From NCBI RefSeq assembly GCF_018798885.1, contig NZ_CP076361.1, positions 2,633,501 to 2,697,500 on the forward strand: a stretch of 64,000 bases of DNA, read 5' to 3'. This DNA comes from Gemmobacter fulvus. Lineage in GTDB: Bacteria; Pseudomonadota; Alphaproteobacteria; Rhodobacterales; Rhodobacteraceae. How positions within the stretch are numbered: position 1 is the stretch's first letter; every line of letters starts with the position of its first letter. The position numbers and the translations under genes were made by a program. Positions 24,763 to 41,503 of the stretch are shown here, piece by piece. Under the pieces are notes generated by a model. The model ran no database searches and was not told the DNA's origin. It saw only the letters and a program-made list of their open reading frames with translations.

Positions 24763-25563
24763 TCAGGCCTCCTCTGACAGCCAGTGCCGGAAGGCCGCCG
24801 TCACCTCTGCATCGCCCGCCACCAGGTATTGCGGCGCGGGATAGCTGCCGGAATGAACATCCGCGACAAACTCGCCATAGGCCGCGATGCGGTCGCGGTG
24901 CAGCCGCGCATATTCTGCGGCGAAATCGCGATAGCGCTTGGCATGGCGCGGCACTTTGCCGGTGGTCTGGCCCAGCACGTCATCGCTGAACAGATACTGG
25001 GCATGGCCGCCCGGACCGGCCCCCATGGAGATCAGGAACAGGTCGGTATGCTCGGCAATCGCATCGGTGATCGACTGCGGCACCACCTCGATTTCCACTG
25101 CAAAGGCCCCGGCCTCTTCCAGTGCCTTACACTGGCGATAGATCATCTGCGCCTGATCCAGTGTCTTGCCCACCGCCTTGAAGCCGCCCGTCCATGTGGC
25201 CTTGGAGGGGATCAGCCCGACATGGCCACAGACCGGCACCGCATGGTCCGCCAGCAAACGGATGGCCGCAACGCTGCCCGAACAATAGACAGCATCCGCG
25301 CCGTGCCGGACCATGGTCAGCGCCCAGTCCAGCATCTTTTCAGGGCCGCCGATATTGTAGAAATTGTCGCCGGGGCAGGCAAAGGCGGAAGGGGCGGCAT
25401 CGCGAAAGCGCGGATCCATCAGCAGCGCGGGCGGCACGGACAGCAGCTCCACCCCGGCACGTTCGGCGGCTTCGGCTTCGTCCAGCGTTTCCACGCGCAG
25501 CATGGCATATTGGTGTGTGCCACGATTGGCGCGCAGGTCTTGAATTGTCGGGCGTCTGGCCAT
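24763..25563 (-). CDS. PanB-family (ketopantoate hydroxymethyltransferase-like) protein, divergent active site
   Basis: The 266-residue protein aligns with PanB in its second half: PVCGHVGLIP, GGFKAVG, ALEEAGAFAVEIEVVP (catalytic Glu kept) and SMGAGPGGHAQYLFSDDVLG. PanB adds a one-carbon unit from methylene-tetrahydrofolate to a keto acid. In the first half, however, the metal-binding Asp of 'VGDS' is replaced (LLSVPPALL, about 40-48) and the lysine of 'MVKIEGG' is Tyr93 (AVYCSGS). It is therefore probably not the housekeeping pantothenate enzyme. It lies 12 bp after the MocE-like gene, in the same leftward operon. Confidence 0.82.
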   Translation of the reverse strand: MARRPTIQDLRANRGTHQYAMLRVETLDEAEAAERAGVELLSVPPALLMDPRFRDAAPSAFACPGDNFYNIGGPEKMLDWALTMVRHGADAVYCSGSVAAIRLLADHAVPVCGHVGLIPSKATWTGGFKAVGKTLDQAQMIYRQCKALEEAGAFAVEIEVVPQSITDAIAEHTDLFLISMGAGPGGHAQYLFSDDVLGQTTGKVPRHAKRYRDFAAEYARLHRDRIAAYGEFVADVHSGSYPAPQYLVAGDAEVTAAFRHWLSEEA

Positions 25564-25575
25564 CTGGAAGGTGCC

Positions 25576-25890
25576 TTATGATAGCTGGATAAAGACGCGA
25601 CCGCCTTCAACCTTGGTGGGATAGGTCTTGAGATTGACGCAGACCGGCGCACGCTTCGCCTCGCCGGTGCGGTAATCGAACTGGCCATTGTGCTTGGGGC
25701 ATTCGATCCGATGCTCCATCACCAGACCATCGGCCAGATGCACCTGTTCATGGCTGCACAGGCCATCGGTGCAGTAGAATGCGCCCTCGGGTGCGTGGTA
25801 GATGGCAAACGTGGCGCTGCCATGATCGAAGCGGATCACATCCTCTTCGTCGATGTCATCCGTGGCGCAGGCGTCGATCCATTGGGTCAT
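25576..25890 (-). CDS. Rieske [2Fe-2S] ferredoxin, MocE-like
   Basis: A 104-residue soluble Rieske ferredoxin: CSH (first Cys-His pair) and CPKH (second) with the correct spacing, and the flanking VCVNLKTYPTKVEGG typical of dioxygenase ferredoxins. ATG 25890 (MTQWIDACATDD) has AAGGAG at about 9 bp; the upstream ATG at 25923 overlaps the MocD-like gene and has no such site. In rhizobia MocE works with MocD in rhizopine (3-O-methyl-scyllo-inosamine) breakdown. Confidence 0.9.
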   Translation of the reverse strand: MTQWIDACATDDIDEEDVIRFDHGSATFAIYHAPEGAFYCTDGLCSHEQVHLADGLVMEHRIECPKHNGQFDYRTGEAKRAPVCVNLKTYPTKVEGGRVFIQLS

Positions 25891-25919
25891 GTGCGTGGCT
25901 CCTTTGCTGTGCAGGTCAG

Positions 25920-27011
25920 TCATTCGGCGGCGGTGCCAAGGGCTGCGCCAAGGGCCGCCATGTGAAAATCGTCGCGGTAGGGTTTGGCGGTGGGCGGCAG
26001 ATCGCGTTTGAGGAAATGATCCTCATTCGCCAGCTGGCGGCGCAGCACCGGCCACATTTCGCGGAACGCCTCGGCGATCGAGCGGTTGGGCGCGGGCAGA
26101 TCGTGCCGGATCAGGGCGTGCAGCTTGGGCAGCGCGTGATAGGGCACCATCGGGAACATGTGGTGTTCCACATGGTAGTTCATGTTCCAGTACACAAAGC
26201 GCGAGAAACGGTTCATCAGCACGGTGCGCGAGTTCAGCCGGTGATCGTTCACATTGTCGGCCAATCCGCCATGTTGCAGCAGGCCGGTCATCACATGATG
26301 CCATGCGCCATAGAGCCGGGGCAGGCCGATCACCATCAGCGGCAGGATCGAGCCCAGCCACAGCGCCAGTGCCAGCGTGGCGGCATAGATCAGGCACCAC
26401 AGCCGCGCCACGCGGATCACCTTGTGATGTTCGGATTGCGGGATATAGGTCTGCTCTTCGGGGGCCAGCCGCCCGGTTGCGTTCAGCAGCATCCGGCCCC
26501 AGCCGGACCAGGCATCAAAGATGCCGAAAAAATTGCCGATCAGCTTGAAAAACACCGGCGGGCGCATGATCGCGATTTCGGGGTCACGGCCCACGATATA
26601 GGTATCGGTATGGTGGCGGGCATGGCTCCAGCGCCAGCTGTGCGGGTTTCGGATCATGCAGAAACAGGCAATGTTGTAGACGAGATTGTTCATCCACGGC
26701 GTCTTGAACGCGGTGCCATGGCTGCATTCATGCCAGCGGCTGTCCATGGCCGAGCCGTAAAACACGCCATAGACCGCCCAGAACGGCAGCGACCAGAACG
26801 AGGGCCAGAGCAGCCATCCCGCTGTCGCGCAGACCAGCATGGTGCCGAACAAAAGGAAGGTGTCGCGGATCGCGGGTTGGTCGGACCGCTGCATCAGGGC
26901 CTTCATTTCCTTGCGCGGCACCTCGGTGTGATACCATTCGGCTGTGGCCAGCCCGGTTTCAACCGCGCGTCGGGCATCAGGCCCCAGAAGGCTGTAATCG
27001 CGTTTTGTCAT
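25920..27011 (-). CDS. fatty-acid-desaturase-fold di-iron oxygenase, MocD-like
   Basis: The 363-residue membrane enzyme has about four transmembrane helices and the three His boxes of the desaturase/hydroxylase family: HECSHG, HARHH and HVEHH. MocD of rhizobia is the relative paired with a Rieske ferredoxin. Start ATG 27011 (MTKRDYSLLGPDARR) follows GGGAGA. It is first in the leftward operon MocD-MocE-PanB-like and is divergent from the LacI gene. The ferredoxin reductase (MocF) is not found nearby. Confidence 0.88.
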   Translation of the reverse strand: MTKRDYSLLGPDARRAVETGLATAEWYHTEVPRKEMKALMQRSDQPAIRDTFLLFGTMLVCATAGWLLWPSFWSLPFWAVYGVFYGSAMDSRWHECSHGTAFKTPWMNNLVYNIACFCMIRNPHSWRWSHARHHTDTYIVGRDPEIAIMRPPVFFKLIGNFFGIFDAWSGWGRMLLNATGRLAPEEQTYIPQSEHHKVIRVARLWCLIYAATLALALWLGSILPLMVIGLPRLYGAWHHVMTGLLQHGGLADNVNDHRLNSRTVLMNRFSRFVYWNMNYHVEHHMFPMVPYHALPKLHALIRHDLPAPNRSIAEAFREMWPVLRRQLANEDHFLKRDLPPTAKPYRDDFHMAALGAALGTAAE

Positions 27012-27166
27012 TGTGATCTCCCGCCGGGGCCGTGGCAGCTCTGGCCTGCCCCTCTTGCTGCCAAGGATAGGCCAACTGCGGCGTCGCGCAATCTGGGCGC
27101 TGGTAGTTTTCGTCAAAATGCATCATCATGCCTGCGGTGAATGATGAAAAACCATCGGGGATGGCT

Positions 27167-28192
27167 ATGGCAAGACGACCGGGAATGGCAGAGCTGGCAC
27201 AGGCGGCTGGGGTATCGGTGGCAACGGTGGACCGGGTGCTGAACGGGCGGGAGCAGGTGAAACCCGATACCGTGGCGCGCGTGCATGAGGCGGCGCTGCG
27301 CATCGGTCATCCGGCGGCGCGGCGCATTGCCCCGCTGGCGGCAGATCTGCCCGAGTTGCGATTCGGCGTGGTGCTGCACAAGCAGGGGCAGGATTTCTAC
27401 AAGGCCTTTGCCGAGGCCCTGCACCGCGCGGTTGCGGCAGCGCCCGGTGTGCGTGGCAAGCTGGTGCTGGAGTTTTCGGCCTCGCAATCGCCCTCCGACA
27501 TGGCGGGGCTGCTGCGCAGCATGGCTGGGCGCTGCGATGTGCTGGCGGCAACGGCGGTCAACCACCCCGAGGTGACTGCCGCCGTTGAGGAGCTGAAGGC
27601 GCAGGGGCTGGCGGTGTTTTCGTTGCTGTCGGATTTCGCGCAGGGGGTGCGGGCGGGGTATGTCGGGCTGAACAACCTCAAGGTCGGGCGCACCGCGGGC
27701 TGGCTGATCGGCATGGCTGGGCGCACGCCGGGCAAGGTGGCGGTGTTTGTCGGCGGCCATCGCTGGCACGGCCATGAACTGCGCGAGGCGGGGTTTCGCA
27801 GCTATCTGCGCGAATGTGCGCCGCAGTTGGCCGTGCTGGACACGGTGGTGAACCTGGAAACCCGGCAATTGACCTATGAGGCGACGCTGGGCCTGCTGGC
27901 GCGCCAGCCCGATCTGCGTGGCATCTATGTGGCGGGCGGCGGCATGGAGGGGGCGATTGCGGCGCTGCGCGAGGCCCGGCCCGCCGGGGTGGCGCTGGTC
28001 GTCTCGGCGCTGACCCCCGATTCGCGCGCCGGTCTGGCTGAAGGCGTGGTGACGCTGGTCACCGATACGCCGCTGGACACGCTGTGCCGTGATCTGCTGG
28101 CCATCATGGTGGCTGCGGCGCGCGATGGGGTGGGGCCAAACGGCATCCAGCATTTTCTGCCCCCCGATATTCACGTGGCGGAATCGCTTTAG
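27167..28192 (+). CDS. LacI-family transcriptional regulator
   Basis: A LacI/GalR repressor of 341 residues: helix-turn-helix GMAELAQAAGVSVATVDRVLNGREQV, then a hinge and a type I periplasmic-binding effector domain. ATGs at 27128, 27161 and 27167 are in frame; 27167 (MARRPGMAEL) has the best spacing from GGGGA. It stands between the MocDE-type operon and the IolI/ABC/IolG operon and probably controls both. Effector likely to be the imported cyclitol or a derivative (inference). Confidence 0.9.
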   Translation: MARRPGMAELAQAAGVSVATVDRVLNGREQVKPDTVARVHEAALRIGHPAARRIAPLAADLPELRFGVVLHKQGQDFYKAFAEALHRAVAAAPGVRGKLVLEFSASQSPSDMAGLLRSMAGRCDVLAATAVNHPEVTAAVEELKAQGLAVFSLLSDFAQGVRAGYVGLNNLKVGRTAGWLIGMAGRTPGKVAVFVGGHRWHGHELREAGFRSYLRECAPQLAVLDTVVNLETRQLTYEATLGLLARQPDLRGIYVAGGGMEGAIAALREARPAGVALVVSALTPDSRAGLAEGVVTLVTDTPLDTLCRDLLAIMVAAARDGVGPNGIQHFLPPDIHVAESL

Positions 28193-28230
28193 GGGGGGCG
28201 GCGCAGCGGTGGCAGTGCCCGGGAATCCGG

Positions 28231-28262
28231 TTTTGGAATTTTTCAGTTGAAATGATCCAAAA
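28231..28262. promoter_or_regulatory. 32-bp imperfect palindrome, candidate LacI-family operator
   Basis: TTTTGGAATTTTTCA and TGAAATGATCCAAAA are 15-base half-sites separated by GT; 12 of 15 positions are symmetric. It lies in an AT-rich patch 63 bp upstream of the IolI-like gene start, within the 132-bp gap after the LacI gene. Confidence 0.7.
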
Positions 28263-28324
28263 ATAGAATATCAATTCCACGACTGCCGCGCCATCGTGGC
28301 GGTCTCTTGGGGGGAATCACGGAT

Positions 28325-29134
28325 ATGCTGCCTTTCGCGTTGAACCACATGACCACGCCGCGTCTGGGCTGGGAGGCGTTTCTGGACCTTTCGGCCAGAC
28401 TGGGCTGCGTCGGGGTGGAGTTTCGCAATGATCTGCCCGGCGCGCTGTTCGACGGGGCCGATCCGGCCGTGGTCGGGGCGGCGGTGCAGGCGCGGGGCCT
28501 GCGCTTTCTGGCGCTGGCCGAAGTGAAGATGTTCAACGACTGGTCGGATGCCAAACAGGCCGAAGCGGCGGCGCTGATGGCGATTGCCAAACAGGCCGGG
28601 GCCGAGACGATCAGCCTGATCCCGCGCAATGATGGCGTGGCGACGGATCGGGCCGACAGCCGCAGGGTCACTGAAACGGCGCTGCGCGCGCTGTTGCCGA
28701 TGCTGCGCGACGCGGGGCTGAAGGCGATGGTCGAGCCGCTGGGCTTCGAGGTCTGCTCGCTGCGCTACAAGGATGTGCTGGCCGATGCGATTGATGCAGT
28801 GGGCGGTGCCGGCACCTATTTCATGGTGCATGATACCTTCCACCATCACCTTGCCGGGGGCGGGGCGATCTTTCCCGAACTGACCGGCATCGTGCATGTG
28901 TCGGGCGTGGTCGATCCGGCGGTGGCTGTCGCGGACATGCGCGACCCGCACCGGGTTCTGGTCGATGATGCAGACCGGCTGGGCAATGTGGCGCAGATCC
29001 GTGCCTTGCGCGCCGCAGGTTATGACGGCCCGATCAGCTTTGAGCCCTTTGCGCCCGAGGTGCATGCGCTGGGCGATGCCTATGCGCCGTTGCGCGCCTC
29101 GATGACGTTTATTGACGCGGGTGTCGCGGCCTGA
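28325..29134 (+). CDS. sugar phosphate isomerase/epimerase, IolI/MocC-like TIM barrel
   Basis: A 269-residue AP-endonuclease-2-type TIM barrel. VGVEFRNDLPGALF, KAMVEPLGFEVC, MVHDTFHHHL and HVSGVVDPA fit the metal-binding positions of inosose isomerase IolI and related proteins (IolE, MocC). GGGGGGAA lies 8 bp ahead of ATG 28325. It is the first gene of the rightward operon behind the palindrome. Inosose isomerase or dehydratase are both possible. Confidence 0.8.
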   Translation: MLPFALNHMTTPRLGWEAFLDLSARLGCVGVEFRNDLPGALFDGADPAVVGAAVQARGLRFLALAEVKMFNDWSDAKQAEAAALMAIAKQAGAETISLIPRNDGVATDRADSRRVTETALRALLPMLRDAGLKAMVEPLGFEVCSLRYKDVLADAIDAVGGAGTYFMVHDTFHHHLAGGGAIFPELTGIVHVSGVVDPAVAVADMRDPHRVLVDDADRLGNVAQIRALRAAGYDGPISFEPFAPEVHALGDAYAPLRASMTFIDAGVAA

Positions 29135-29221
29135 CCGCCACCCGCCTCAAAACAGCCGCTCCGGGGAGGGGCGGTCCGGCTGGAGCATGGTGCGCCGGAC
29201 ACCGATAGTGGAGGAACGAGA

Positions 29222-30163
29222 ATGAAAAAGACCCTTCTGGCTGCCGGTTTTGCCTCGCTGATGGCAACCACCGCAATGGCGCAAGACATTGGCGTGTCGA
29301 TGGCGCTGTTTGACGACAACTTTCTGACGGTTCTGCGCAACGGGCTGGATGCCAAGGGCAAGGAACTGGGCGTCGGCCTGCAGATCGAAGATGCGCAGAA
29401 CGATGTGGCCAAGCAGCTTGACCAGATCAACAACTTCATCGCCTCGGGCGTGTCGGCCATCATCGTGAACCCGGTCGATACCTCGGCCACGCAGGCCATG
29501 TCGGATGCCGCCGCTGCCGCGAACATCCCGCTGGTCTATGTGAACCGCGAGCCGGTGAACGTCGACACCATGCCCGACAATCAGGCCTTCGTCGCCTCGA
29601 ACGAACTGGATTCGGGCACGCTGCAAACCAAGGAAGTCTGCCGCCTGTTCAAGGACGCGGGCAAGACCGAGGCGAACATCTATGTGATCATGGGCGAGCT
29701 GTCGAACCAGGCTGCCGTGATGCGCACCAAGGACATTCACGATGTCATCGCCGGGCCGGATTGCGGCGTGAAGGTCAATATCCTGGACGAGCAGACCTCG
29801 AACTGGTCGCGCGATCTGGCACAGAACCTGATGACCAACTGGCTGTCCACCGGCGCGGCGTTTGATGGCGTGATTGCCAACAATGACGAATCCGCCATCG
29901 GCGCCATTCAGGCGATGAAGGCATCGGGCGTGGATATGGCCACCGTCGTGGTGGCAGGTATCGACGCCACGCAGGACGCACTGGCGGCGATGCAGGCGGG
30001 CGATCTGGATGTGACGGTGTTCCAGGATGCTGCCGGTCAGGGCGCAGGCGCGCTGGATGCGGCGATCAAGCTGAGCAAAGGCGAAGCCGTGGAGCAGAAG
30101 GTCTACATTCCGTTCCAGCTGGTGACCCCGGCCAATATCGGCGATTTCCTCGCCAAGAACTGA
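29222..30163 (+). CDS. sugar ABC transporter substrate-binding protein (ribose/inositol type, MocB-like)
   Basis: A periplasmic-binding protein of the ribose/galactose family (313 residues) with a signal peptide ending TTAMA-QD. The type I PBP fold is clear: 'IEDAQNDVAKQLDQINNFI', 'AIIVNPVDTSAT', 'NNDESAIGAIQAM'. The ligand is probably a sugar or cyclitol, given the IolI- and IolG-like neighbours. GGAGG precedes the ATG. A hairpin terminator follows, so its mRNA is likely more abundant than that of the permease. Confidence 0.9.
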   Translation: MKKTLLAAGFASLMATTAMAQDIGVSMALFDDNFLTVLRNGLDAKGKELGVGLQIEDAQNDVAKQLDQINNFIASGVSAIIVNPVDTSATQAMSDAAAAANIPLVYVNREPVNVDTMPDNQAFVASNELDSGTLQTKEVCRLFKDAGKTEANIYVIMGELSNQAAVMRTKDIHDVIAGPDCGVKVNILDEQTSNWSRDLAQNLMTNWLSTGAAFDGVIANNDESAIGAIQAMKASGVDMATVVVAGIDATQDALAAMQAGDLDVTVFQDAAGQGAGALDAAIKLSKGEAVEQKVYIPFQLVTPANIGDFLAKN

Positions 30164-30177
30164 TCCCGTTGCGGATC

Positions 30178-30206
30178 GGGGCGGCGCAGAGGTGCCGCCC
30201 CTCTTT
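30178..30206 (+). terminator. attenuating terminator between binding protein and permease genes
   Basis: GGGGCGGC (30178-30185) and GCCGCCCC (30194-30201) form an 8-bp stem with an 8-base loop, followed by TCTTT. Its place inside the operon suggests partial termination to raise binding-protein output. Confidence 0.72.
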
Positions 30207-30274
30207 GATCTCTGACCGGACGTGACGCGTCAGCAGAGTTTATTTCAGCAGTTAATCCGGGGGAGGGTGCAGCC

Positions 30275-31351
30275 GTGTCACAAACGACGCATGGGCTGGG
30301 CGGCCTGAAATATGATCCGACAAAGAAAGCACGCGCGCCAGAATGGAACGTCTTCTTTGCTCTGGTCGGCATCATCATCGTGTTCGAACTGATCGGTCGG
30401 CTGTTCATGGGCGACAGCTTTCTGTTCAACACACGCGACAATGTGGACACGCTGTTCAATCAGGCGCGGTTGCAGATCATCATCCTTCAGGTGTCCATCG
30501 TCGGCATCATCGCCATCGGTGTGACGCAGGTTATCATCACCGGCGGGATTGATCTGTCGTCTGGCTCCATCGTCGGGGCCACGGCGATGATCGCCATGAG
30601 TTTTGCACAGGTTGCCATGGTGAACGGCAACCCCAACCCCAAGGCGATTTTCGGGGATCTGGGCTGGATGGACCTGCCGGTGATCGTGCCGGTGCTGGTC
30701 GGGCTGAGCTGCGGTGTGGTGGCGGGCCTGATCAACGGATCCTTGGTGGCCTATACCAAGATCCCGCCGTTCATCGCCACGCTGGGCATGATGGTCACGG
30801 CGCGCGGCATTGCGAAATGGTGGTCCAAGGGCAACCCGATCTCTTTCCCGACCGACAGCTATGCGCTGATCGGCAAGGGCATGACGCCGGTGTTCCTGTT
30901 CGTGGTGCTGGCGGTGCTGTTCCACTGTATCATGACCTACACGAAATATGGCAAACATTGCTACGCCATCGGCTCGAACGAAGCGGCGACGCGCATGTCG
31001 GGCATCAATGTCGACCGTCACAAGGTGCTGGTCTATGTCATCGCCTCGGGTCTGGCTGCCTTTGCTGCCATCGTGCTGTCGTCCAAGAACCTGACCGCAC
31101 AGGCCGGCATGGGGGTGATGTATGAACTCGACGCCATCGCCATGGCCGTGATCGGCGGGGTGTCGCTGCAAGGCGGGCGCGGCTCGATCCTCGGCACCGT
31201 GCTGGGCGCGCTGATCTTCGGCGTGATCATCTCGGGCTTCACCTTCCTGAAGCTCGACGCGTATTATCAGGAAATGGTCAAGGGCGTGATCATCGTCGGT
31301 GCCGTGGTTCTGGATCAATGGCGGCAGCAAAGCCGGTCGCGGGGGAAATAA
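30275..31351 (+). CDS. sugar ABC transporter permease (RbsC/IatP-like)
   Basis: The 358-residue membrane protein of the RbsC family has about ten hydrophobic helices and the family motifs GVTQVIITGGIDLSSGS and IGSNEAATRMSGINV, plus GVSLQGGRGSILGTVLGAL near the C-terminus. The start is GTG 30275 behind GGGGGAGG. It is followed by its ATPase at 3 bp spacing. Confidence 0.92.
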   Translation: MSQTTHGLGGLKYDPTKKARAPEWNVFFALVGIIIVFELIGRLFMGDSFLFNTRDNVDTLFNQARLQIIILQVSIVGIIAIGVTQVIITGGIDLSSGSIVGATAMIAMSFAQVAMVNGNPNPKAIFGDLGWMDLPVIVPVLVGLSCGVVAGLINGSLVAYTKIPPFIATLGMMVTARGIAKWWSKGNPISFPTDSYALIGKGMTPVFLFVVLAVLFHCIMTYTKYGKHCYAIGSNEAATRMSGINVDRHKVLVYVIASGLAAFAAIVLSSKNLTAQAGMGVMYELDAIAMAVIGGVSLQGGRGSILGTVLGALIFGVIISGFTFLKLDAYYQEMVKGVIIVGAVVLDQWRQQSRSRGK

Positions 31352-31354
31352 GCC

Positions 31355-32125
31355 ATGAGCGATATCATTCTGGAAACCCGTGGCCTGACCAAACGCTATG
31401 GCGGTGTGCATGCGCTGGAGGATGCCAATTTCGTGCTGCGCAAGGGCGAACATATCGCTGTGGTGGGCGACAATGGCGCGGGCAAATCGACCTTCGTGCG
31501 CCAGATCACGGCGGTAGAGCAGAAGTCCGGCGGGCAGGTGTTTTTCGATGGCCGCGAGGTGAACTTCTCGGGGCCGCTGGAGGCGCGCGAATCCGGGATC
31601 GAAACCGTGTTTCAGACGCTGGCGCTGGCCGATGATCTGGACGTGCCGTCGAACCTGTTTCTGGGGCGCGAGCTGTTCAAGTTCCGCCTTGGGCCGTTTT
31701 CGGTGCTGGATCGCAAGACGATGCGCGAACGCACGCTGGAGGCGCTGAAAACCACGGCGGTCAAGATCCCCAATGTCGACAACCCTATCCGCAACATGAG
31801 CGGCGGGCAGCGGCAATGTGTGTCCATCGCGCGCACGGCGGCCTTTGCGTCGAAACTGGTGATCATGGATGAACCGACGGCGGCGCTGGGGGTGCAGGAA
31901 ACCGCGCAGGTGGAAAACATCATTCGCGGCCTGAAGGAGCGCGGCGTGCCACTGATTCTGGTCAGCCACAATCTGCGGCAGGTGTTTGATCTGGTCGACC
32001 GGATCGTGGTGTTCCGGCGCGGGCGCATCGTGGCGAGCCTGAACAAGGACGAAACCGACGGCAATGACATCGTGAGTTATATCACCGGCGTCAAAGGCAT
32101 CGGGGCCGAGGCAAGCCATGCGTGA
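31355..32125 (+). CDS. sugar ABC transporter ATPase, single-domain
   Basis: A 256-residue ABC ATPase: Walker A GDNGAGKST, signature MSGGQRQCVSIARTA, Walker B LVIMDEPTAALG and H-loop SHN. Most sugar importers of the Rbs type use a double-domain ATPase; this one has a single domain like a minority of inositol and fructose importers and must act as a homodimer. Its 3' end overlaps the SDR start by 8 bp. Confidence 0.92.
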   Translation: MSDIILETRGLTKRYGGVHALEDANFVLRKGEHIAVVGDNGAGKSTFVRQITAVEQKSGGQVFFDGREVNFSGPLEARESGIETVFQTLALADDLDVPSNLFLGRELFKFRLGPFSVLDRKTMRERTLEALKTTAVKIPNVDNPIRNMSGGQRQCVSIARTAAFASKLVIMDEPTAALGVQETAQVENIIRGLKERGVPLILVSHNLRQVFDLVDRIVVFRRGRIVASLNKDETDGNDIVSYITGVKGIGAEASHA

Positions 32126-32900
32126 CCACGCCGAAACGGTGGCCGTGATCACCGGCGGATCGCAGGGCCTTGGCCTTGCGATTGCCGAGCGGCTGCTGGC
32201 CGAAGGCTGCGGGCGCATGATCCTGGCAGGCCGGGGTGTTGCCAAGGGCGAGGCGGTAGCGGCGCAGCTCAGGGCAGGCGGGGCCGACGTGCGCTTCCTG
32301 CCCGCCGATATGGGCCGCCCGGACGAGGCGATTGCCCTGATCGACCGCGCGGCATCGCGGTTTGGCCGGGTGACGGCGCTGGTCAATGCGGCGGCGGCCA
32401 CCGACCGCGGCTCGATCCTTGATACAACGCCCGAGGCCTGGGACAACCTGATGGCCGTCAATGCCCGCGGGCCGTTCTTTGCGCTGCAACGTTTTGCGCA
32501 GCTGGCGGCGCAACACGGCCATCCGGCGCAGGCGGTCAATATCCTGTCGATGGTGGTGCATTGCGGCCAAAGCTTTCTGGCGCCCTATTCGGCCAGCAAG
32601 GCCGCGCTGGCCAATGTGACGCGCAACGCGGCGCAGGCACTGCGCGGCCATCGCATCCGGGTCAATGCCATCAACTGCGGCTGGATGGACACGCCGGGCG
32701 AGGATGAGACCCAGCGCAAATACCATGGGGCCACCGATGGCTGGCTGGCGGCGGCAGAGGCGGCGCAGCCGATGGGCATGTTGGTCAAACCCGCGCATGT
32801 GGCGGGGCTGGCCAGTTTCATGCTATCGCCCGCCTCTGGCGTGATGACCGGGGCTGTGGTGGATTTCGATCAGAATGTTTCCGGCGCCTATCCCGAATAA
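32118..32900 (+). CDS. SDR-family oxidoreductase in the inositol-like operon
   Basis: A classical SDR of 260 residues: TGGSQGLG cofactor loop, VNAAAATDRG, a catalytic YSASK and a C-terminal substrate loop. Overlap with the ATPase gene shows co-translation. In this setting it could oxidise an inositol or inosose derivative, or a sugar acid, but its substrate is not evident. Confidence 0.88.
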   Translation: MRDHAETVAVITGGSQGLGLAIAERLLAEGCGRMILAGRGVAKGEAVAAQLRAGGADVRFLPADMGRPDEAIALIDRAASRFGRVTALVNAAAATDRGSILDTTPEAWDNLMAVNARGPFFALQRFAQLAAQHGHPAQAVNILSMVVHCGQSFLAPYSASKAALANVTRNAAQALRGHRIRVNAINCGWMDTPGEDETQRKYHGATDGWLAAAEAAQPMGMLVKPAHVAGLASFMLSPASGVMTGAVVDFDQNVSGAYPE

Positions 32901-32951
32901 CCGGGCGCGGAGCGAACAACCGGCCCAAGCGGCCAACCGTAAGAGGACAAG

Positions 32952-33953
32952 ATGACTGTCAAATTCGCGCTTCTGGGCGCTGGCCGGATCGGCAAGGTTC
33001 ACGCCAAGGCGATCACGGGCGATGCCAATGCCACGCTGGTGGCCGTGGCCGATGCGTTTCCCACGGCGGCACAGGCGATTGCCGATCACTATGGCTGTCA
33101 GGTGCGCAGCATCGAGGAAATCGCGGCGGCCAAGGATATTGACGCCGTGGTGATCTGCACCCCCACCGATACCCATGCCGACCTGATCGAGATGTTCGCC
33201 ACGGCGGGCAAGGCGATCTTCTGCGAAAAGCCGATCGACCTGAGCCTTGACCGCGTGAAGGCCTGCCTGTCGGTGGTGCGCGCCACCAAGGCCACGCTGA
33301 TGGTGGGTTTCAACCGCCGCTTCGACCCGCATTTCGCCGCCGTCCGTGCCGAGATCGACAAGGGCACGATCGGCGATGTGGAAATGGCCGTCATCACCTC
33401 GCGCGATCCGGGCGCGCCGCCGATTGACTATATCGGGCGGTCGGGCGGGATCTTCCGCGACATGACCATCCATGATTTCGACATGGCGCGCTTCCTGCTG
33501 GGCGAAGAGATTGCCGAAGTGGCCGCCACCGCCGCAGTGCTGGTGGATCCGGCGATTGGCACGGCAGGCGATTTCGACAGCGTTCAGGTGCTGCTGAAAA
33601 CCGCCAGCGGCAAACAGGCGATGATTTCGAACTCGCGCCGCGCCACCTATGGCTATGATCAGCGCATCGAGGTGCATGGCTCCAAAGGCGCGGCCTCGGC
33701 GGAAAACCAGCGCCCGGTGTCCATCGAGGTGGCGACGTCGGCCGGCTATACCCGGCCGCCGCTGCATGACTTCTTCATGACCCGCTATACCGAGGCCTAT
33801 GCCGCCGAAATCGCGAGCTTCATCACCGCAGTTTCGGGCAAGGGCGCTGCCGAACCTTCGGGCGAGGATGGGCTGATCGCACTGGCGCTGGCCAATGCGG
33901 CGCTGCTGTCTGTGGCCGAAGGCCGCACTGTGAAAATGTCGGAAATCCTGTAA
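32952..33953 (+). CDS. Gfo/Idh/MocA-family dehydrogenase, inositol 2-dehydrogenase-like
   Basis: The 333-residue NAD(P)-dependent oxidoreductase shows LLGAGRIGKVHA (nucleotide binding), FCEKPIDLSLD (the EKP motif with catalytic Lys), NRRFDPHF and GGIFRDMTIHDFDMARFLLGE, as in IolG and MocA. IolG oxidises myo-inositol to scyllo-inosose. It is the last gene of the rightward operon, behind GAGGACAAG. MocA-type rhizopine dehydrogenase is an alternative. No iolB, iolC or iolD lies in the window. Confidence 0.9.
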   Translation: MTVKFALLGAGRIGKVHAKAITGDANATLVAVADAFPTAAQAIADHYGCQVRSIEEIAAAKDIDAVVICTPTDTHADLIEMFATAGKAIFCEKPIDLSLDRVKACLSVVRATKATLMVGFNRRFDPHFAAVRAEIDKGTIGDVEMAVITSRDPGAPPIDYIGRSGGIFRDMTIHDFDMARFLLGEEIAEVAATAAVLVDPAIGTAGDFDSVQVLLKTASGKQAMISNSRRATYGYDQRIEVHGSKGAASAENQRPVSIEVATSAGYTRPPLHDFFMTRYTEAYAAEIASFITAVSGKGAAEPSGEDGLIALALANAALLSVAEGRTVKMSEIL

Positions 33954-35974: not shown

Positions 35975-37024
35975 ATGGCTGTGACCCTGACCACCCTTCC
36001 GCAGATCTTCGCCCTTGGCTTTGACAGCATCATCGACGTGCGCTCGCCCGCCGAATGGGCCGAGGATCATATTCCGGGTGCCATCAACCTTCCGGTGCTG
36101 AATGATGCGGAGCGCGCCGAGGTGGGCACGATCTACAAACAGGTCAGCCCGTTCACCGCGCGCAAGATCGGCGGGGCGCTGGTGGCGAAGAATGCCGCCG
36201 CCCATCTGCAGGGGCCACTGGCCGACAAGACGGGCGGCTGGAAACCGCTGGTCTATTGCTGGCGCGGCGGGCAGCGTTCCGGCTCTTTCACCTCGATCCT
36301 GCAACAGGTGGGCTGGCGGGCCGATGTGATCGCGGGCGGTTACAAGGCCTGGCGCAAGCTGGTGGTGGATCAGGTGCATGAGCGCCCGGTGCCCAGCCCG
36401 GTGGTGCTGCTGGATGGCAATACCGGCTCTGCCAAGACCGAGGTGCTGGCTTTGCTGGCCGCACAGGGCGTGCAGGTGATCGACCTTGAGGGCATGGCGC
36501 GGCACCGGGGATCGCTGTTCGGGGCGCTGCCGGGTGGGCAGCCGTCGCAAAAGACATTCGAGGGGGCCCTGGCACTGGCGCTGGCCCGGCTCGACCCCGC
36601 CCGCCCGGTGGTGGTGGAGGCGGAAAGCTCCAAGGTTGGTAATTGCCGGATCCCGGCGCCCCTGTGGAAGGCGATGGTCGCGGCCCCGAGGATCGAGATC
36701 GTGGCGCCGCTGGCCGCACGGGCTGCGTATCTGACGCGGGCCTATGCCGATCTTCTGGCCGATCCGGCGCGGCTGGTGCAGGTGATCGCCTTGCTGCGCC
36801 CGCTGCACCCCGCTGTGGTGATCGAGGCATGGCAGGCGCAGGCCGGGGCCGGGGCCTTCACCGATCTGGCCGAAGGGCTGATGGCGCGGCACTATGATCC
36901 GCGCTACGCCAAACATCGCGGGCGTCTGGCAGTGCCGGTGCAGCGGGTCGCGGTGGACAGCCTGGCCCCGGCGGCGCTGCCGGAACTGGCGGCCCGTATC
37001 GCGGCGCGGTTGCACGACAGGTAA
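35975..37024 (+). CDS. mnmH: tRNA 2-selenouridine synthase (SelU)
   Basis: MnmH replaces sulfur in 2-thiouridine at the tRNA wobble base with selenium from selenophosphate. The 349-residue protein has an N-terminal rhodanese domain (IIDVRSPAEWAEDHIPGA) with the catalytic Cys in YCWRGGQRSGS, and a C-terminal P-loop domain with GNTGSAKT. The convergent neighbour selD supplies selenophosphate. Confidence 0.95.
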   Translation: MAVTLTTLPQIFALGFDSIIDVRSPAEWAEDHIPGAINLPVLNDAERAEVGTIYKQVSPFTARKIGGALVAKNAAAHLQGPLADKTGGWKPLVYCWRGGQRSGSFTSILQQVGWRADVIAGGYKAWRKLVVDQVHERPVPSPVVLLDGNTGSAKTEVLALLAAQGVQVIDLEGMARHRGSLFGALPGGQPSQKTFEGALALALARLDPARPVVVEAESSKVGNCRIPAPLWKAMVAAPRIEIVAPLAARAAYLTRAYADLLADPARLVQVIALLRPLHPAVVIEAWQAQAGAGAFTDLAEGLMARHYDPRYAKHRGRLAVPVQRVAVDSLAPAALPELAARIAARLHDR

Positions 37025-37056
37025 TCTTGCGGAGCGCGCGATGCGCGCAAGACTTT
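37025..37056 (+). terminator. hairpin after mnmH
   Basis: TCTTGC and GCAAGA flank an inner GCGC / GCGC pair, followed by CTTT, directly after the mnmH stop. This lies between the convergent mnmH and selD. Confidence 0.5.
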
Positions 37057-37126
37057 GAGCGCGCCTGCACCGCCTGTGGCGGTTTGGCTTGTGGCCTGCG
37101 GCGCGAGTATTTTTACAAATTGCAAA

Positions 37127-39328
37127 TCAGCGTGCGGTGATATGGGCCGGGCCTTCGGTCAACTGGCCGATGCGGGCGGCGGTGATGCCCTTTGCGTGGA
37201 GCGCCGCGAGGGTGGAGGTGGCCTTGGCTGCGGGCAGGGCGGCGAGAAAGCCGCCCGCGGTCTGGGGATCGAACAGCAGGGCGGTCTCGGGCGTGTCTGG
37301 TGCATCGAGTTGGCCGTGCAGGGCGGCGCGATTGGCAGGGGCGAGGCTGGAGGCCATGCCCTGCGCCGCCAGATCGCGGGCGCCGGGCAGCAGCGGCAGG
37401 GCGGCCAGATCCAGAATGGCGCCGGTGCCGGAGGCCGTGCAGATCTCCAGCAGGTGCCCGGCGAGGCCGAAGCCGGTGACATCAGTCAGCGCATGGGCGA
37501 CCGGGGTCAGCAGGGCGGCGGCCTCGGCGGGGGATTGGCACATTGACGCGAAGGCCGCCGCGACAGCCTCGCCCAGCAAGAGGTCTTGCGGCGCAAGGCG
37601 CGCCATTTCTGCGGCAAGAATAATGCCGGTTCCCAGCGGTTTGGTGAGGATCAGCGCATCGCCGGGGGTGCCGCCGCCTTTGGTCAGGATCCGTTCGGCG
37701 CGGCCTGTCACGGTGAAGCCCAGCGTCAGTTCGGCCCCGATGCTGGTATGGCCGCCGACGATGTCGGCCCCCGCCGCGCGGAAGGTTTTAGTGGCGGTGG
37801 CCATGATTTCGCGCAGGGTTTCGGCCTGAAGCCGGGGCGAGAGGCGGGGCAGGGTAATCTGCGCCAGCGCGCTGTGCGGCTGTGCCCCCATGGCCCAGAC
37901 ATCGCCCATCGCATGCAGGGCGGTGATCCGGGCCATCAGCGCAGGATCGGCGGTGAAGGCGCGCAGGTGATCGGTGGTCAGAACCTGAAAGCCGGGACCA
38001 TGGCGCAGCACGGCGGCATCATCGCCGGGGCCGCTGAGCACATCGGGGTTTTGCGGCGCGGGCAGCGGGGCCAGCGCCGTCGCCAGATCCCGCGCCCCGA
38101 CCTTGGCGCCGCAGCCGCCGCAAAGTGGTTTTGGCCCCAGCGCCTCGGCCAGACCGGCGGCGGCGGGAGTGGGCAGGCGGCGGGCAGGCATCGCCGGCAG
38201 GGTGGTGAATTTTGCCATGAAGGCACGGTCGATCTGGTCTTTCCAGCGCCAGAGCCAGGGGTGCGACAGGCGCAGGCCGAGTTTGTCGGCCACGGCATTG
38301 CGCCGCCCTGTCGACACGAGTTTCAGGTAATCGCGCTGCGGCTGGTATGGGCGCATCCGGCCCTGTTCGGCCAGGGCCACGCGCAGATTGTGCAAAAGTA
38401 TGGGGGCCTCGCGCACCGCAAAGACACCGGCCTTGGGGCGGGGGGCATGGGTCAGATGGGCGCAATCGCCCGCCGCGAAGATCGCGGGATCGGAGCTTTG
38501 CAGCGTGGGGGTGACGCAGACATATCCGTCCTGTAGATCCAGCCCTGTCGCGGCCAGCCAGTCGTGTGGCCGTGCGCCCGCGACCGAGAGGATGAAATCG
38601 GCGGCAATCTGTCGGCCATCCTGAAGCGTGACGCCGTCTGCGGTCAGCCCTGCGGCCTTTGTGCCGGTCAGCAGGTGCACATCGGCGGCTGCCAGCTCTG
38701 CCAGCAGCGCCCGGCGTGCGCCGTTGCCGATATGGGGCAGCGCGGTCTGTGCCTGTTCCAGCAGCGTCAGCTGCGGTCTGGCCCCGGTGCTGCGCAGCCG
38801 ATGTGCGGTGGCCAGCGCCAGCTCCACACCGCCGATGCCGGCCCCGAGGATCACCACGCGCGGCGCGGCCAGCCCGCGCGCCAGAAACGCCTGCCAGCGC
38901 GCGGCATAGCCCGCCAGCGGCTTGGCCGATACCGCATGGTCAGCAAAGCCCGGCAGGCGCGGCAGATCCGAGGTGATGCCGATGTCGAGGCTGGCCACAT
39001 CATAGGCCACCGGCGGCCGACCCGAGGACAGATGCACCCGCCGCGTGCTGCGGTCCAGCCCGCATGCGTGATCGAGAATCAGCCGCGCCCCGGCAAACCG
39101 TGCCAGCGGCACAAGGTCGATCATCATTTCGGCCCGCTGGTAATGGCCTGCGATGAAACCGGGCAACATGCCGGTATAGGGGGTGACCGGATCGGGGTTG
39201 ATCACGGTCAGCCGCACCCCCGGCAAGGGCGTCATGCCCCACATGCGCAAGAGCAGGGCATGGGCATGGCCGCCGCCGATCAGCACCAGATCGCGGGTCA
39301 GTGGCAGATCCCTGTCAGCGTGCTGCAT
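37127..39328 (-). CDS. selD: selenophosphate synthetase fused to an N-terminal NADH-dehydrogenase-like flavoprotein
   Basis: SelD makes selenophosphate from selenide and ATP. The 733-residue protein has two parts. Residues 1 to about 375 are a pyridine nucleotide-disulfide oxidoreductase-like domain: LVLIGGGHAHALLL, VVILGAGIGGVELAL and IFAAGDCAHL. The remainder is SelD, beginning at the catalytic CGGCGAK (about 400), then GDDAAVL, ITALHAMGDVWAMGAQP and VTGFGLAGHLLEI. The catalytic residue is Cys, not selenocysteine. Such fusions are known in several bacterial groups; the flavoprotein half may generate selenide (inference). Confidence 0.93.
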   Translation of the reverse strand: MQHADRDLPLTRDLVLIGGGHAHALLLRMWGMTPLPGVRLTVINPDPVTPYTGMLPGFIAGHYQRAEMMIDLVPLARFAGARLILDHACGLDRSTRRVHLSSGRPPVAYDVASLDIGITSDLPRLPGFADHAVSAKPLAGYAARWQAFLARGLAAPRVVILGAGIGGVELALATAHRLRSTGARPQLTLLEQAQTALPHIGNGARRALLAELAAADVHLLTGTKAAGLTADGVTLQDGRQIAADFILSVAGARPHDWLAATGLDLQDGYVCVTPTLQSSDPAIFAAGDCAHLTHAPRPKAGVFAVREAPILLHNLRVALAEQGRMRPYQPQRDYLKLVSTGRRNAVADKLGLRLSHPWLWRWKDQIDRAFMAKFTTLPAMPARRLPTPAAAGLAEALGPKPLCGGCGAKVGARDLATALAPLPAPQNPDVLSGPGDDAAVLRHGPGFQVLTTDHLRAFTADPALMARITALHAMGDVWAMGAQPHSALAQITLPRLSPRLQAETLREIMATATKTFRAAGADIVGGHTSIGAELTLGFTVTGRAERILTKGGGTPGDALILTKPLGTGIILAAEMARLAPQDLLLGEAVAAAFASMCQSPAEAAALLTPVAHALTDVTGFGLAGHLLEICTASGTGAILDLAALPLLPGARDLAAQGMASSLAPANRAALHGQLDAPDTPETALLFDPQTAGGFLAALPAAKATSTLAALHAKGITAARIGQLTEGPAHITAR

Positions 39329-39487
39329 TGCGGCCCTTTCCCTGATCCACCGTCCGATCCGCCACCCTACCGCCTTGTCCGGGCGAGGGCGAGAGGCGGG
39401 CAGCGACAGAATAGGTCGCACAAGGGGGTGACCCCTGTCCGGCTTCGGCCTATTTCGGAGGGAACAGGAACAGGGACGGCAAACGCG

Positions 39488-41503
39488 ATGGCATATTTCC
39501 TCGGGGTGGATACGGGCGGCACCTATACCGATGCGGTGATCGTGGATGAGGCCGCGACGCAGGTGATCGGCAAGGCAAAATCGCTGACCACGCGCGGCGA
39601 TCTGGCGCTGGGCATCGGGCGGGCGGTGGATGCCGCACTGGCCGGGGCCGGGGTGGCGGCCGCCGACATCTCGATGGTGTCGCTGTCCACCACACTGGCC
39701 ACCAATGCGCTGGTCGAGGGGCAGGGCGGGCGGGTTGCGCTGATCTTCATCGGCTTCGATGCGGGCGATCTGGAGCGTGGCGGTCTGACCGAGGCGCTGG
39801 GCGGCGATCCGGTGCTGCGGCTGGCCGGGGGGCACGAACATTCCGGCAGCGAAACTGCGCCGCTGGATCTGGCGGCGCTGGAGGCCGAGGCGGCGCGGCT
39901 TGGGCCGGAGGTGATGGGGTTTGCCGTGGCCAGCCGGTTTGCCACCCGCAACCCGGCGCATGAGGTGGCGGCGCGCGATCTGATCCGCCGGGTGACGGGG
40001 CGGCCCGTCACCTGTTCGCACGAGCTTTCGGCCAATCTCAACGGGCCGAAGCGGGCGCTGACAGCGGTGCTGAATGCGCGGCTGATCGGCATGATCGACC
40101 GGCTGGTTGCGGCCTGCGAACGGCATCTGGCGGCTTTGGGCATTGCTGCGCCGCTGATGGTGGTGCGCGGCGACGGCGCGCTGATTTCGGCGGCCATGGT
40201 GCGCGAGCGTCCGATTGAAACCATCCTGTCGGGCCCGGCTGCCTCGATCGTGGGGGCGCGCTGGCTGACCGGGGCGCCCGATGCGCTGGTGTCTGACATC
40301 GGCGGCACCACCACCGATGTGGCGCTGCTGCGCGATGGGTTGCCCGAGATCGACCCTGAGGGCGCGCGGGTCGGTGGCTTCCGCACCATGGTCGAGGCGG
40401 TGGCAATGCGCACCACCGGGCTGGGCGGCGATTCCGAGGTGCATCTGATCACGTCGGGGCTGGAGGGCGGGCTGCGGCTTGGCCCGCGCCGCCTGATCCC
40501 GGTGGCGCTGCTGGCGGTGGACCATCCCGACATGGTGCATATGGCGCTGGACCGCGCATTGTCGACCGAGGTGGCGGGCGAATTTGACGGGCGGTTTGTC
40601 ATTCCGATGGGCGGCAATCCGGGGGGGCTGTCGGCGCGCGAAGCGGCGCTGCTGGCGCGGATCACCACGCCGATGCCGCTGGCCCAGCCGATCACCTCGC
40701 GGCTGGAAGTGGCAGCGATGGAGCGGCTGGTGGCGCGCGGGCTGGTGATGATCGCGGGGGTGACGCCTTCGGATGCCAGCCATGTGCTCGGGCGGCTGGG
40801 CGATTGGGATGCGCAGGCGGCGGAAAAGGCGGTGCGCCTGCTGGGGCGGCGGCGCACCGGCAAGGGCGAGCGGTTTGCGACCGATCCATTGGTGCTGGCG
40901 CAAAAGGTGGTGGACCAGCTGACCACGCAGACGGTGGATTGCCTGCTGGAGGCCGCCTTTGCCGAAGATCCGGCCTTTGCAGGCGAGCCGCCCGAGGTGC
41001 TGGCCCGGCATGTTCTGGCGCAGCGCGGCATCGCCGGGCATCGCGGCGTGGTGCAGGCCACGCTGCGGCTCGGGGTGCCGGTGATCGGGCTGGGGGCTTC
41101 GGCTCCCGCCTATTACGGCGCGGTAGGTGATCGGCTGGGGGCAGAGATGATCCTGCCCGAACATGCGGGCGTCGCCAATGCCATCGGCGCGGTGGTAGGG
41201 CAGGTCAGCCAGCGCGCGCGCGGCATCGTCACCAGCCCCGGCGAGGGGCGCTTTGTGGCGCATCTGGCCACGGGCAACCAGATGTTTGCCAGCCGCGATG
41301 CCGCACTGGACGCGCTGGAGGCCGCTCTGACCGAGGAGGCGACAGAGCGCGCCCGCCGCGCCGGGGCCGCCGATCTGCGCATAACGCCCGAGCGCAACAT
41401 CCGCGAAGCCGAGATCGAAGGCCGCGTGATGTTTGTCGAGGCGAGTATCAGCGTGACGGCCACCGGGCGCCCGCGCATTGCCCATGATCGCGGGGTTGCG
41501 TGA
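39488..41503 (+). CDS. hydantoinase/oxoprolinase family protein (HyuA-like)
   Basis: The 671-residue protein has the hydantoinase A layout with an actin-like ATPase fold: GVDTGGTYTDAVIVDEA at the N-terminus, STTLATNALVEGQGG, and DIGGTTTDVALL in the middle. HyuA-type enzymes hydrolyse N-methylhydantoins or 5-oxoproline in an ATP-dependent reaction. The usual HyuB partner is absent from the window. It is divergent from selD with a 159-bp gap. Confidence 0.88.
   Translation: MAYFLGVDTGGTYTDAVIVDEAATQVIGKAKSLTTRGDLALGIGRAVDAALAGAGVAAADISMVSLSTTLATNALVEGQGGRVALIFIGFDAGDLERGGLTEALGGDPVLRLAGGHEHSGSETAPLDLAALEAEAARLGPEVMGFAVASRFATRNPAHEVAARDLIRRVTGRPVTCSHELSANLNGPKRALTAVLNARLIGMIDRLVAACERHLAALGIAAPLMVVRGDGALISAAMVRERPIETILSGPAASIVGARWLTGAPDALVSDIGGTTTDVALLRDGLPEIDPEGARVGGFRTMVEAVAMRTTGLGGDSEVHLITSGLEGGLRLGPRRLIPVALLAVDHPDMVHMALDRALSTEVAGEFDGRFVIPMGGNPGGLSAREAALLARITTPMPLAQPITSRLEVAAMERLVARGLVMIAGVTPSDASHVLGRLGDWDAQAAEKAVRLLGRRRTGKGERFATDPLVLAQKVVDQLTTQTVDCLLEAAFAEDPAFAGEPPEVLARHVLAQRGIAGHRGVVQATLRLGVPVIGLGASAPAYYGAVGDRLGAEMILPEHAGVANAIGAVVGQVSQRARGIVTSPGEGRFVAHLATGNQMFASRDAALDALEAALTEEATERARRAGAADLRITPERNIREAEIEGRVMFVEASISVTATGRPRIAHDRGVA

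What the first reader, a model, noticed from the sequence alone, without database searches (positions are those of the whole stretch)
24763..33953. Candidate catabolic island for an O-methylated or modified inositol
MocD-like di-iron oxygenase and MocE-like Rieske protein, known from rhizopine breakdown, stand back to back with an inositol-type set (IolI-like isomerase, ABC importer, IolG-like dehydrogenase, SDR) under a LacI regulator. The usual iolB, iolC and iolD genes are missing. A plausible scheme is import, oxidative removal of a methyl (or other) group by MocDE, and oxidation by the dehydrogenases. The real substrate is unknown.
Basis: partly seen in the sequence, partly recalled or inferred. 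Interest (0 to 1): 0.7.

Follow-up and report, generated by a model that had tools for sequence, protein, structure and literature searches.

The report
Methyl-inositol demethylation island with PanB-like enzyme
A bacterial gene island seems to import inositol-like sugars, strip methyl groups from them with oxygen, and feed the rest into the ordinary inositol pathway; it carries an overlooked PanB-like enzyme that also follows the demethylation genes of known rhizopine loci.

Summary
(1) iolC, iolD, iolE and iolB are not missing from the genome: they lie together 2.6 Mb away, without an IolG. In 78 of 80 named relatives PanBL lies within 2 kb downstream of MocD/MocE. In 14 of 14 plasmid loci with a rhizopine-type MocR (at least 80% identical) the order is MocD-MocE-MocF-PanBL-PurU. 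PanBL lacks four PanB active-site residues in 40 of 40 sequences but keeps a His and a Glu. PurU (formyl-THF deformylase) suggests that the removed methyl carbon goes onto tetrahydrofolate. The importer/IolG operon looks like an inositol front end: in some relatives it adjoins iolC/iolD, and its promoter gap has an IolR-type box (one mismatch here). Best reading: MocDE oxidatively demethylates an O-methyl-cyclitol, PanBL handles the C1 unit, and IolG passes the ring to the iol pathway. Substrate and PanBL chemistry are inferred, not shown.

The parts
24763..25563 (-). PanBL: divergent PanB homologue without the PanB metal site; proposed C1 (formaldehyde) handling enzyme
   Evidence: PF02548 127.8 bits, TIGR00222 94.8 below cut-off 207.55; 40/40 PanBL lack the PanB D, D, K, E residues, keep H and E
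25576..25923 (-). MocE-type Rieske [2Fe-2S] ferredoxin (likely start at an inner ATG)
   Evidence: TIGR02377 168.6 > 136.15; CxH-CxxH motif; 68% identical to the moc-locus MocE
25920..27011 (-). MocD-type membrane di-iron oxygenase
   Evidence: PF00487 122 bits; three His boxes; 67% identical to the moc-locus MocD
27128..28192 (+). LacI-family regulator (true start probably later)
   Evidence: PF00356 and PF13407
27142..27157 (.). weak copy (5 mismatches) of a palindrome, TGACGAAAATTCGTCA, found in the MocD/LacI gap of relatives
   Evidence: 32 of 45 loci with <=4 mismatches, shuffles mean 0.5, max 2; the window itself is not among the 32
28264..28279 (.). IolR-type box GGAA-N6-TTCC with one mismatch (TGGAATTGATATTCTA on the - strand)
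   Evidence: exact box in 19 of 45 LacI/TIM gaps (window not among them), shuffles mean 0.2, max 2
28307..29134 (+). xylose-isomerase-like TIM barrel, 2q02/4hgx type
   Evidence: PF01261; PDB 2q02 95.7 bits, IolI 1i60 18.9 bits
29222..30163 (+). periplasmic binding protein, 63% identical to the MocB-position protein of a rhizopine-type locus
   Evidence: (best PDB 4yo7, 186 bits)
30275..31351 (+). ABC permease (sugar type)
   Evidence: PF02653
31355..32125 (+). ABC ATPase
   Evidence: PF00005
32118..32900 (+). SDR oxidoreductase of subfamily PRK06198
   Evidence: NF004847 337.5 > 240
32952..33953 (+). IolG, inositol 2-dehydrogenase
   Evidence: TIGR04380 413.1 > 355; PDB 4hkt 542 bits

Best explanation
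This is a peripheral cyclitol module that feeds the ordinary inositol pathway. The SBP/permease/ATPase imports inositol-type cyclitols. MocD (di-iron) with MocE (its ferredoxin; an unlinked reductase is needed) hydroxylates the O-methyl group of a methylated cyclitol such as pinitol or ononitol, and the resulting hemiacetal releases formaldehyde and the free ring. PanBL takes up the C1 unit, most likely onto tetrahydrofolate, from which it leaves as formate through FolD and PurU. IolG (with SDR and TIM barrel perhaps adjusting stereochemistry) oxidises the ring to an inosose, which the distant iolE-D-B-C products degrade. Shown here: gene content, recurrence, loss of the PanB active-site residues, order in moc operons, IolR-type box, iol core elsewhere. 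Inferred: demethylation, substrate, C1 role of PanBL, FolD step (not searched for).
For: PanBL lies within 2 kb downstream of MocD/MocE on the same strand in 78 of 80 named loci; after thinning at 80% identity 20 of 21 have MocD, MocE or the FA-hydroxylase type in the stretch. 14 of 14 records with MocR >=80% identical read MocD-MocE-MocF-PanBL-PurU; the one MocR tested passes NF052281, 739 against 650. PurU also follows PanBL on the same strand in 6 of 80 named loci. Where MocD is replaced by an FA_hydroxylase- or sterol-desaturase-type protein, PanBL stays (own C4 cluster; L104, L176, L177, L181, L189), so it tracks the reaction rather than one oxygenase family. Marivivens LCG002 has MocD-MocE-PanBL-TIM-SBP-permease-ATPase-iolG-iolC-iolD; L046 has PanBL, IolG, PurU, IolC, IolD and IolB in one run. 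IolR-type box in 19 of 45 importer gaps. PanBL and SBP co-occur in 14 of 149 family genomes (27 with PanBL, 30 with SBP; Fisher p = 3.7e-5). Precedents: PanB uses 5,10-methylene-THF (PMC4814558, passages); the nicotine operon purU-mabO-folD moves a methyl carbon through THF (PMC3891541, passage).
Against: No biochemistry supports any step. PurU is not in the island; 7 of 80 named loci have it within the fetched stretch, 2 of 21 after thinning. The own PurU is on another contig. Formaldehyde is said to condense with THF spontaneously (PMC7073904, abstract start in a listing), so an enzyme may not be needed. No MocF lies in the island; the best own homologue is unlinked, 42%. The SBP occurs without PanBL in 16 of its 30 family genomes, so the importer is not tied to a methylated substrate. 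The LacI-type palindrome is poor in the window (5 mismatches), and the IolR-type box was found in only 2 of 7 importer loci lacking MocD and PanBL in the stretch. One of 20 fetched family loci (L179) has PanBL but no oxygenase nearby, and among class-level loci, with more distant members, only 7 of 17 show MocD, MocE or FA hydroxylase.
Confidence: 0.55

Rival explanations
1. Two neighbours, not one pathway: the importer/IolG operon serves plain myo-inositol under IolR, and the LacI-controlled MocDE-PanBL unit demethylates something unrelated.
For: Importer operon beside iolC/iolD without PanBL in the stretch in L152, L157, L160; IolR-type box in 19 of 45 importer gaps but 1 of 45 MocD/LacI gaps; MocD-MocE-reductase-PanBL occurs alone with LacI in Sinorhizobium and beside other sugar- or betaine-type genes.
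Against: Same arrangement in 44 named loci plus the window; near-complete single-direction runs in L106 and L187; a second, differently built IolG-PanBL-MocE cluster in the same genome; IolG-IolB with PanBL-MocDE in L041, and IolC-D-B in one run with PanBL in L046.
Confidence: 0.22
2. A true rhizopine locus: the substrate is 3-O-methyl-scyllo-inosamine.
For: MocD, MocE and SBP 67, 68 and 63% identical to the proteins of a rhizopine-type locus.
Against: The island has LacI in place of MocR, and IolG is 28% identical to the MocA-position protein. The intact PanBL (11) and the SBP (14) proteins of moc loci form clades of their own.
Confidence: 0.07
3. PanBL is not a C1 enzyme but a lyase or hydrolase for the oxidised product, or adds formaldehyde to a keto-cyclitol.
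For: The PanB fold superfamily is recalled to include C-C lyases; PanBL lost the residues for binding a keto acid through metal (role recalled) but keeps H and E and has invariant E157 and H207.
Against: Its neighbours change with the apparent substrate (inositol, betaine-type, sugar-acid contexts) while PanBL stays, which fits a common product such as formaldehyde; PurU follows it in the moc loci.
Confidence: 0.15

Closest known systems
Rhizopine catabolism locus moc (mocR, mocBA, mocDEF, mocC) of Sinorhizobium and Rhizobium
   Same: MocD and MocE types, MocB-like binding protein, Gfo/Idh dehydrogenase; the 14 moc loci examined here also carry PanBL (and PurU)
   Different: LacI instead of MocR; true IolG rather than MocA; no local MocF or PurU; separate PanBL and SBP clades
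Alphaproteobacterial myo-inositol regulon (iolCDEB, idhA, ibpA-iatA-iatP, IolR; PMC2597717, passages)
   Same: IolG equivalog, IolR-type box, iolC, iolD, iolE and iolB present in the genome
   Different: different importer: 4irx (recalled to be Caulobacter IbpA) is the 18th PDB match, 94.8 bits against 186.2 for 4yo7; MocDE-PanBL added
Ketopantoate hydroxymethyltransferase PanB
   Same: Pfam PF02548; His and Glu positions kept
   Different: about 20-residue deletion; two Asp, one Lys and one Glu of PanB absent in 40 of 40; below model cut-offs
Nicotine plasmid operon purU-mabO-folD (PMC3891541, passage)
   Same: demethylation coupled to THF and PurU
   Different: an oxidase (MABO) instead of a di-iron oxygenase; no PanB-like protein mentioned in the passage read

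Membership tests
Rhizopine (moc) catabolic locus | MocR regulator in the locus | tested here: not met
   LacI-family regulator in its place
Rhizopine (moc) catabolic locus | MocD and MocE | tested here: met
   67% and 68% identical to moc-locus proteins
Rhizopine (moc) catabolic locus | MocF reductase in the operon | tested here: not met
   none among the island's genes; best own homologue unlinked, 42%
Rhizopine (moc) catabolic locus | MocA dehydrogenase | tested here: not met
   IolG is 28% identical to the MocA-position protein
Rhizopine (moc) catabolic locus | MocB binding protein | tested here: inconclusive
   63% identical over full length to the MocB-position protein; NF052284 'rhzpin_SBP' only 36 bits against a cut-off of 420; ligand unknown
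Inositol (iol) catabolism | inositol 2-dehydrogenase IolG | tested here: met
   TIGR04380 413.1 > 355
Inositol (iol) catabolism | iolB, iolC, iolD, iolE in the genome | tested here: met
   all above cut-off at G000:C1 about 17.6-23.2 kb; not in the island
Inositol (iol) catabolism | IolR box GGAA-N6-TTCC upstream | tested here: inconclusive
   one mismatch in the window; exact in 19 of 45 equivalent gaps
PanB (ketopantoate hydroxymethyltransferase) | equivalog score | tested here: not met
   94.8 against 207.55
PanB (ketopantoate hydroxymethyltransferase) | metal-binding Asp/Asp/Glu and active-site Lys (E. coli numbering and roles recalled) | tested here: not met
   absent in 40 of 40 PanBL, present in 5 of 5 PanB
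MocDEF-type oxidative demethylase | O2-dependent release of the methyl carbon | not testable with these tools
   needs an enzyme assay

The most novel reading that the evidence does not exclude
PanBL is a new tetrahydrofolate-linked enzyme family, a PanB stripped of its keto-acid/metal half, that takes formaldehyde (or the hydroxymethyl hemiacetal itself) from MocD- or FA-hydroxylase-type oxygenases and makes methylene-THF. It is an overlooked common part of oxidative demethylation modules, including the rhizopine operon, which would then be mocDEF plus PanBL plus PurU.
Probability: 0.35. Interest if true: 0.75.

Novelty: new variant of a known kind. Interest (0 to 1): 0.57.

Why it matters
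O-methyl-inositols are common plant metabolites (general knowledge), and I found no account, in what I could search, of how bacteria remove the methyl group and dispose of the formaldehyde. The recurrent MocD-MocE-PanBL unit gives a testable answer, and it suggests that the rhizopine operon, used as a plant-bacteria signalling tool, contains two genes (PanBL and purU) beyond mocDEF. PanBL is annotated as the pantothenate enzyme PanB in many of the plasmid records listed, which is probably wrong.

Tried and rejected
Considered and set aside: (1) PanBL as the genome's pantothenate PanB. It is below the model cut-offs, and a further PanB-like match exists at G000:C1:1353567; I could not confirm that match as a full-length PanB (one search kept five PanBs from other genomes, not this one). 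(2) The TIM barrel as IolI: weak match only. (3) The binding protein as orthologue of Caulobacter IbpA: 94.8 bits for 4irx against 186 for 4yo7; what these two entries are and that 4yo7 holds myo-inositol is recalled, not read. (4) NCBIfam 'rhzpin_SBP' was not a useful marker here: 36 bits for the window SBP, 152 and 138 for two other proteins that it matched, cut-off 420. (5) My first PanB alignment picked wrong frames and was replaced; the five PanBs in it were picked by a GHxGLxPQ-type motif, so their His is there by choice.

A paper search on methylated-sugar demethylation with THF gave nothing (0 papers).

Not-in-print statement: searches in the open-access library showed, among the rows listed, no paper linking a PanB-like protein or PurU with mocDEF; several lists were capped (20 of 61, 15 of 175, 12 of 363, 12 of 41), and most listed papers were not opened. 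PMC10107442 was read in passages only; the words purU, formyltetrahydrofolate, hydroxymethyltransferase and formaldehyde do not occur in its main text, but its Figure S1 (synteny of moc regions) was not available and may draw these genes. Bahar 1998 and Rossbach 1994 were not read.
Full report
What is there. The window lies at G000:C1:2633501-2697500 of a 4.68 Mb genome in seven contigs. Minus-strand genes run MocD (ends 25920, start ATG at 27011), MocE (25576-25923) and a PanB-family protein, here PanBL (24763-25563). Plus-strand genes run LacI, TIM barrel, binding protein, permease, ATPase, SDR and IolG (27128-33953). Family scores support the assignments: MocE family ferredoxin 168.6 against 136.15; IolG equivalog 413.1 against 355; SDR PRK06198 337.5 against 240. 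MocD keeps three His boxes and MocE its Rieske motif. The TIM barrel is not close to IolI (18.9 bits) but to 2q02 and 4hgx (about 95 bits). That 2q02 is a Salmonella inositol-cluster protein is recalled, not read.

The iol core is not missing. A search with a relative's IolC found one strong match, 84%, at G000:C1:17640. The stretch around it holds iolC, iolD, iolE and iolB, each above its equivalog cut-off. The whole-genome search with IolG puts its two close copies elsewhere: the window's own and one on contig C4, 50% identical; the other matches are at most 32%. The window operon therefore plausibly supplies import and the first oxidation.

The importer/IolG operon looks like an inositol front end. 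Among 149 genomes of the family the binding protein occurs in 30 (E <= 1e-80) and PanBL in 27 (E <= 1e-45), with 14 in common (Fisher p = 3.7e-5 with the own genome, 9.5e-5 without). I fetched 12 stretches around binding proteins. In four of them the importer genes adjoin iolC and/or iolD: L157 and L160, which also hold an IolG relative (64%); L159, which holds one too (65%) and has MocD; and L152, whose Gfo/Idh gene is only 27% identical to IolG. L157 and L152 come from genomes without a PanBL match at the limit used; the genomes of L159 and L160 have PanBL elsewhere. In 45 loci with the window's arrangement (44 named loci plus the window), the LacI/TIM gap holds an exact GGAA-N6-TTCC in 19 (shuffles mean 0.2, max 2) and the MocD/LacI gap in 1; in 10 thinned loci the counts are 5 and 0. 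This is the IolR-linked motif of Caulobacter and relatives (PMC2597717, passages). The window has one mismatch (28264-28279), and the own iolC has an exact copy upstream. A control against my reading: of seven importer loci without MocD or PanBL in the stretch, checked over 300 bp upstream of TIM or SBP, two had the box.

PanBL is the constant partner of MocDE. MocD or MocE lies within 2 kb upstream on the same strand in 78 of 80; the two exceptions are a contig end (L098) and L104, where an FA_hydroxylase-type protein and MocE flank PanBL. Thinned at 80% identity, 20 of 21 have MocD, MocE or the FA hydroxylase in the stretch. Of 39 PanBL matches in the family survey I fetched 20, mostly the higher-scoring ones that are not of the window's type: 19 have an oxygenase and/or MocE nearby, L179 has none; 19 matches were not fetched in that call. 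At class level, with more distant members, 7 of 17 loci do.

A second cluster in the same genome. Contig C4 holds a cluster with IolG (50%), PanBL (49%), a MocE-type protein, another TIM barrel, ABC genes and an FA_hydroxylase-type membrane protein in place of MocD. It is conserved in two other genomes (L176, L177). PanBL, IolG and a histidine-rich membrane oxygenase thus come together twice, with different oxygenase families.

The rhizopine operon. Of 31 plasmid records with a MocR relative, 14 are at least 80% identical to the Rhizobium indicum query (itself one of them), which passes the rhizopine MocR equivalog (739 against 650). All 14 show MocD, MocE, MocF, PanBL and PurU in that order and strand. 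They come from three genera and many are near-identical, so they count as few independent cases. Some frames are interrupted: PanBL in L194, L196 and L201, MocD in L199, MocR and PurU in L201. Published descriptions that I saw name mocRABCDEF (PMC10107442, PMC6668481, passages). PMC11387232 (passage) names S. meliloti 1021 SM_b20817-20820 as LacI, mocD, mocE and mocF; the pSymB DNA shows MocD, MocE, MocF and PanBL relatives in a row. That these are the same genes is likely but was not checked by coordinates, as the record held is unannotated.

PurU and the C1 idea. PurU directly follows PanBL on the same strand in the 14 moc loci and in 6 of 80 named loci. It is convergent beside PanBL in one more (L058) and lies within the PanBL-IolG-IolC run of L046. 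The own PurU, 77% identical to the moc one, lies on contig C3 beside a GcvT-like protein, not in the island. Deformylating formyl-THF makes sense if the methyl carbon passes through THF, as in the nicotine operon purU-mabO-folD (PMC3891541, passage; that review names formaldehyde as the product, whereas the enzyme name implies formate). Against need for an enzyme, formaldehyde is said to condense with THF spontaneously (PMC7073904, abstract start in a listing). Other partners of MocDE-PanBL-type units (a glycine-betaine-type binding protein in L043, sugar-acid genes in L052, DUF4432-like and Gfo/Idh genes in Mesorhizobium and others, a DMSP-lyase-family gene in L189) suggest varied methylated substrates with a common C1 product. 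These identifications, except the annotation of L189, rest on my reading of sequences, not on profile scores.

PanBL is not PanB. In an alignment of 40 PanBL and 5 PanB proteins, the two metal Asp, the Lys and the Glu (E. coli D45, D84, K112, E114; numbering and roles recalled) are present in 5 of 5 PanB and 0 of 40 PanBL. A stretch of 41 residues is cut to 20-25 in 38 of 40. H136 and E181 equivalents are kept 40 of 40, and E157 and H207 (window numbering) are invariant in PanBL and differ in the five PanBs. A PanB that lost its keto-acid site but kept the rest could work on formaldehyde and THF; PanB itself uses 5,10-methylene-THF (PMC4814558, passages). This is inference; the structure job did not finish.

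Membership. The island is not a rhizopine locus (no MocR, MocA or MocF in it; separate clades), though MocD, MocE and the SBP are 63-68% identical to proteins of one. It belongs with the inositol pathway by IolG and gene neighbourhood. PanBL is a PanB-family protein but not a PanB.

Verdict. A conserved, probably O-methyl-cyclitol-demethylating front end of inositol catabolism, with an unrecognised PanB-like component that extends the known mocDEF module. The demethylation step, the substrate and the PanBL reaction remain to be tested.

Noticed in passing
G000 contig C4, L009 15205-19922 and L010 129-2219: A second IolG/PanBL/MocE cluster with an FA_hydroxylase-type membrane protein instead of MocD and a different binding protein.
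   Followed up: partly
G000:C3:209457-210338 (L207): A PurU 77% identical to the rhizopine-locus PurU sits beside a GcvT-like protein and a 719-aa flavin-oxidoreductase-like protein (read from sequence only): possibly another demethylation locus.
   Followed up: partly
L109, L112-L137 (22 of 80 loci): In 21 Rhizobiales loci and one Tateyamaria the MocD/PanBL unit sits with ABC genes, a Gfo/Idh dehydrogenase and another TIM barrel, in 17 loci with a DUF4432-like protein (name from my reading): probably a different methylated substrate.
   Followed up: no
L148 7470-8726 and L072, L086-L088, L090, L092, L098, L101: A Gfo/Idh dehydrogenase (levoglucosan-dehydrogenase-like, below cut-off) beside the own iol core has relatives directly downstream of PanBL in these 8 of 80 loci: a further link between the two.
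   Followed up: partly
window 27018-27160 and relatives: Palindrome TGACGAAAATTCGTCA (<=4 mismatches) in the MocD/LacI gap of 32 of 45 loci and in 16 of 45 LacI/TIM gaps: candidate LacI operator that would tie the two operons; poor in the window.
   Followed up: partly
window 35975-41485: SelU-like gene and a long frame ending in SelD-like sequence stand next to each other (read from the translations only).
   Followed up: no
L189 (Mesorhizobium sp. 131-2-1 plasmid): Sterol-desaturase-type protein, PanBL, 2Fe-2S protein and FAD reductase beside a DMSP-lyase-family gene and taurine ABC genes.
   Followed up: no
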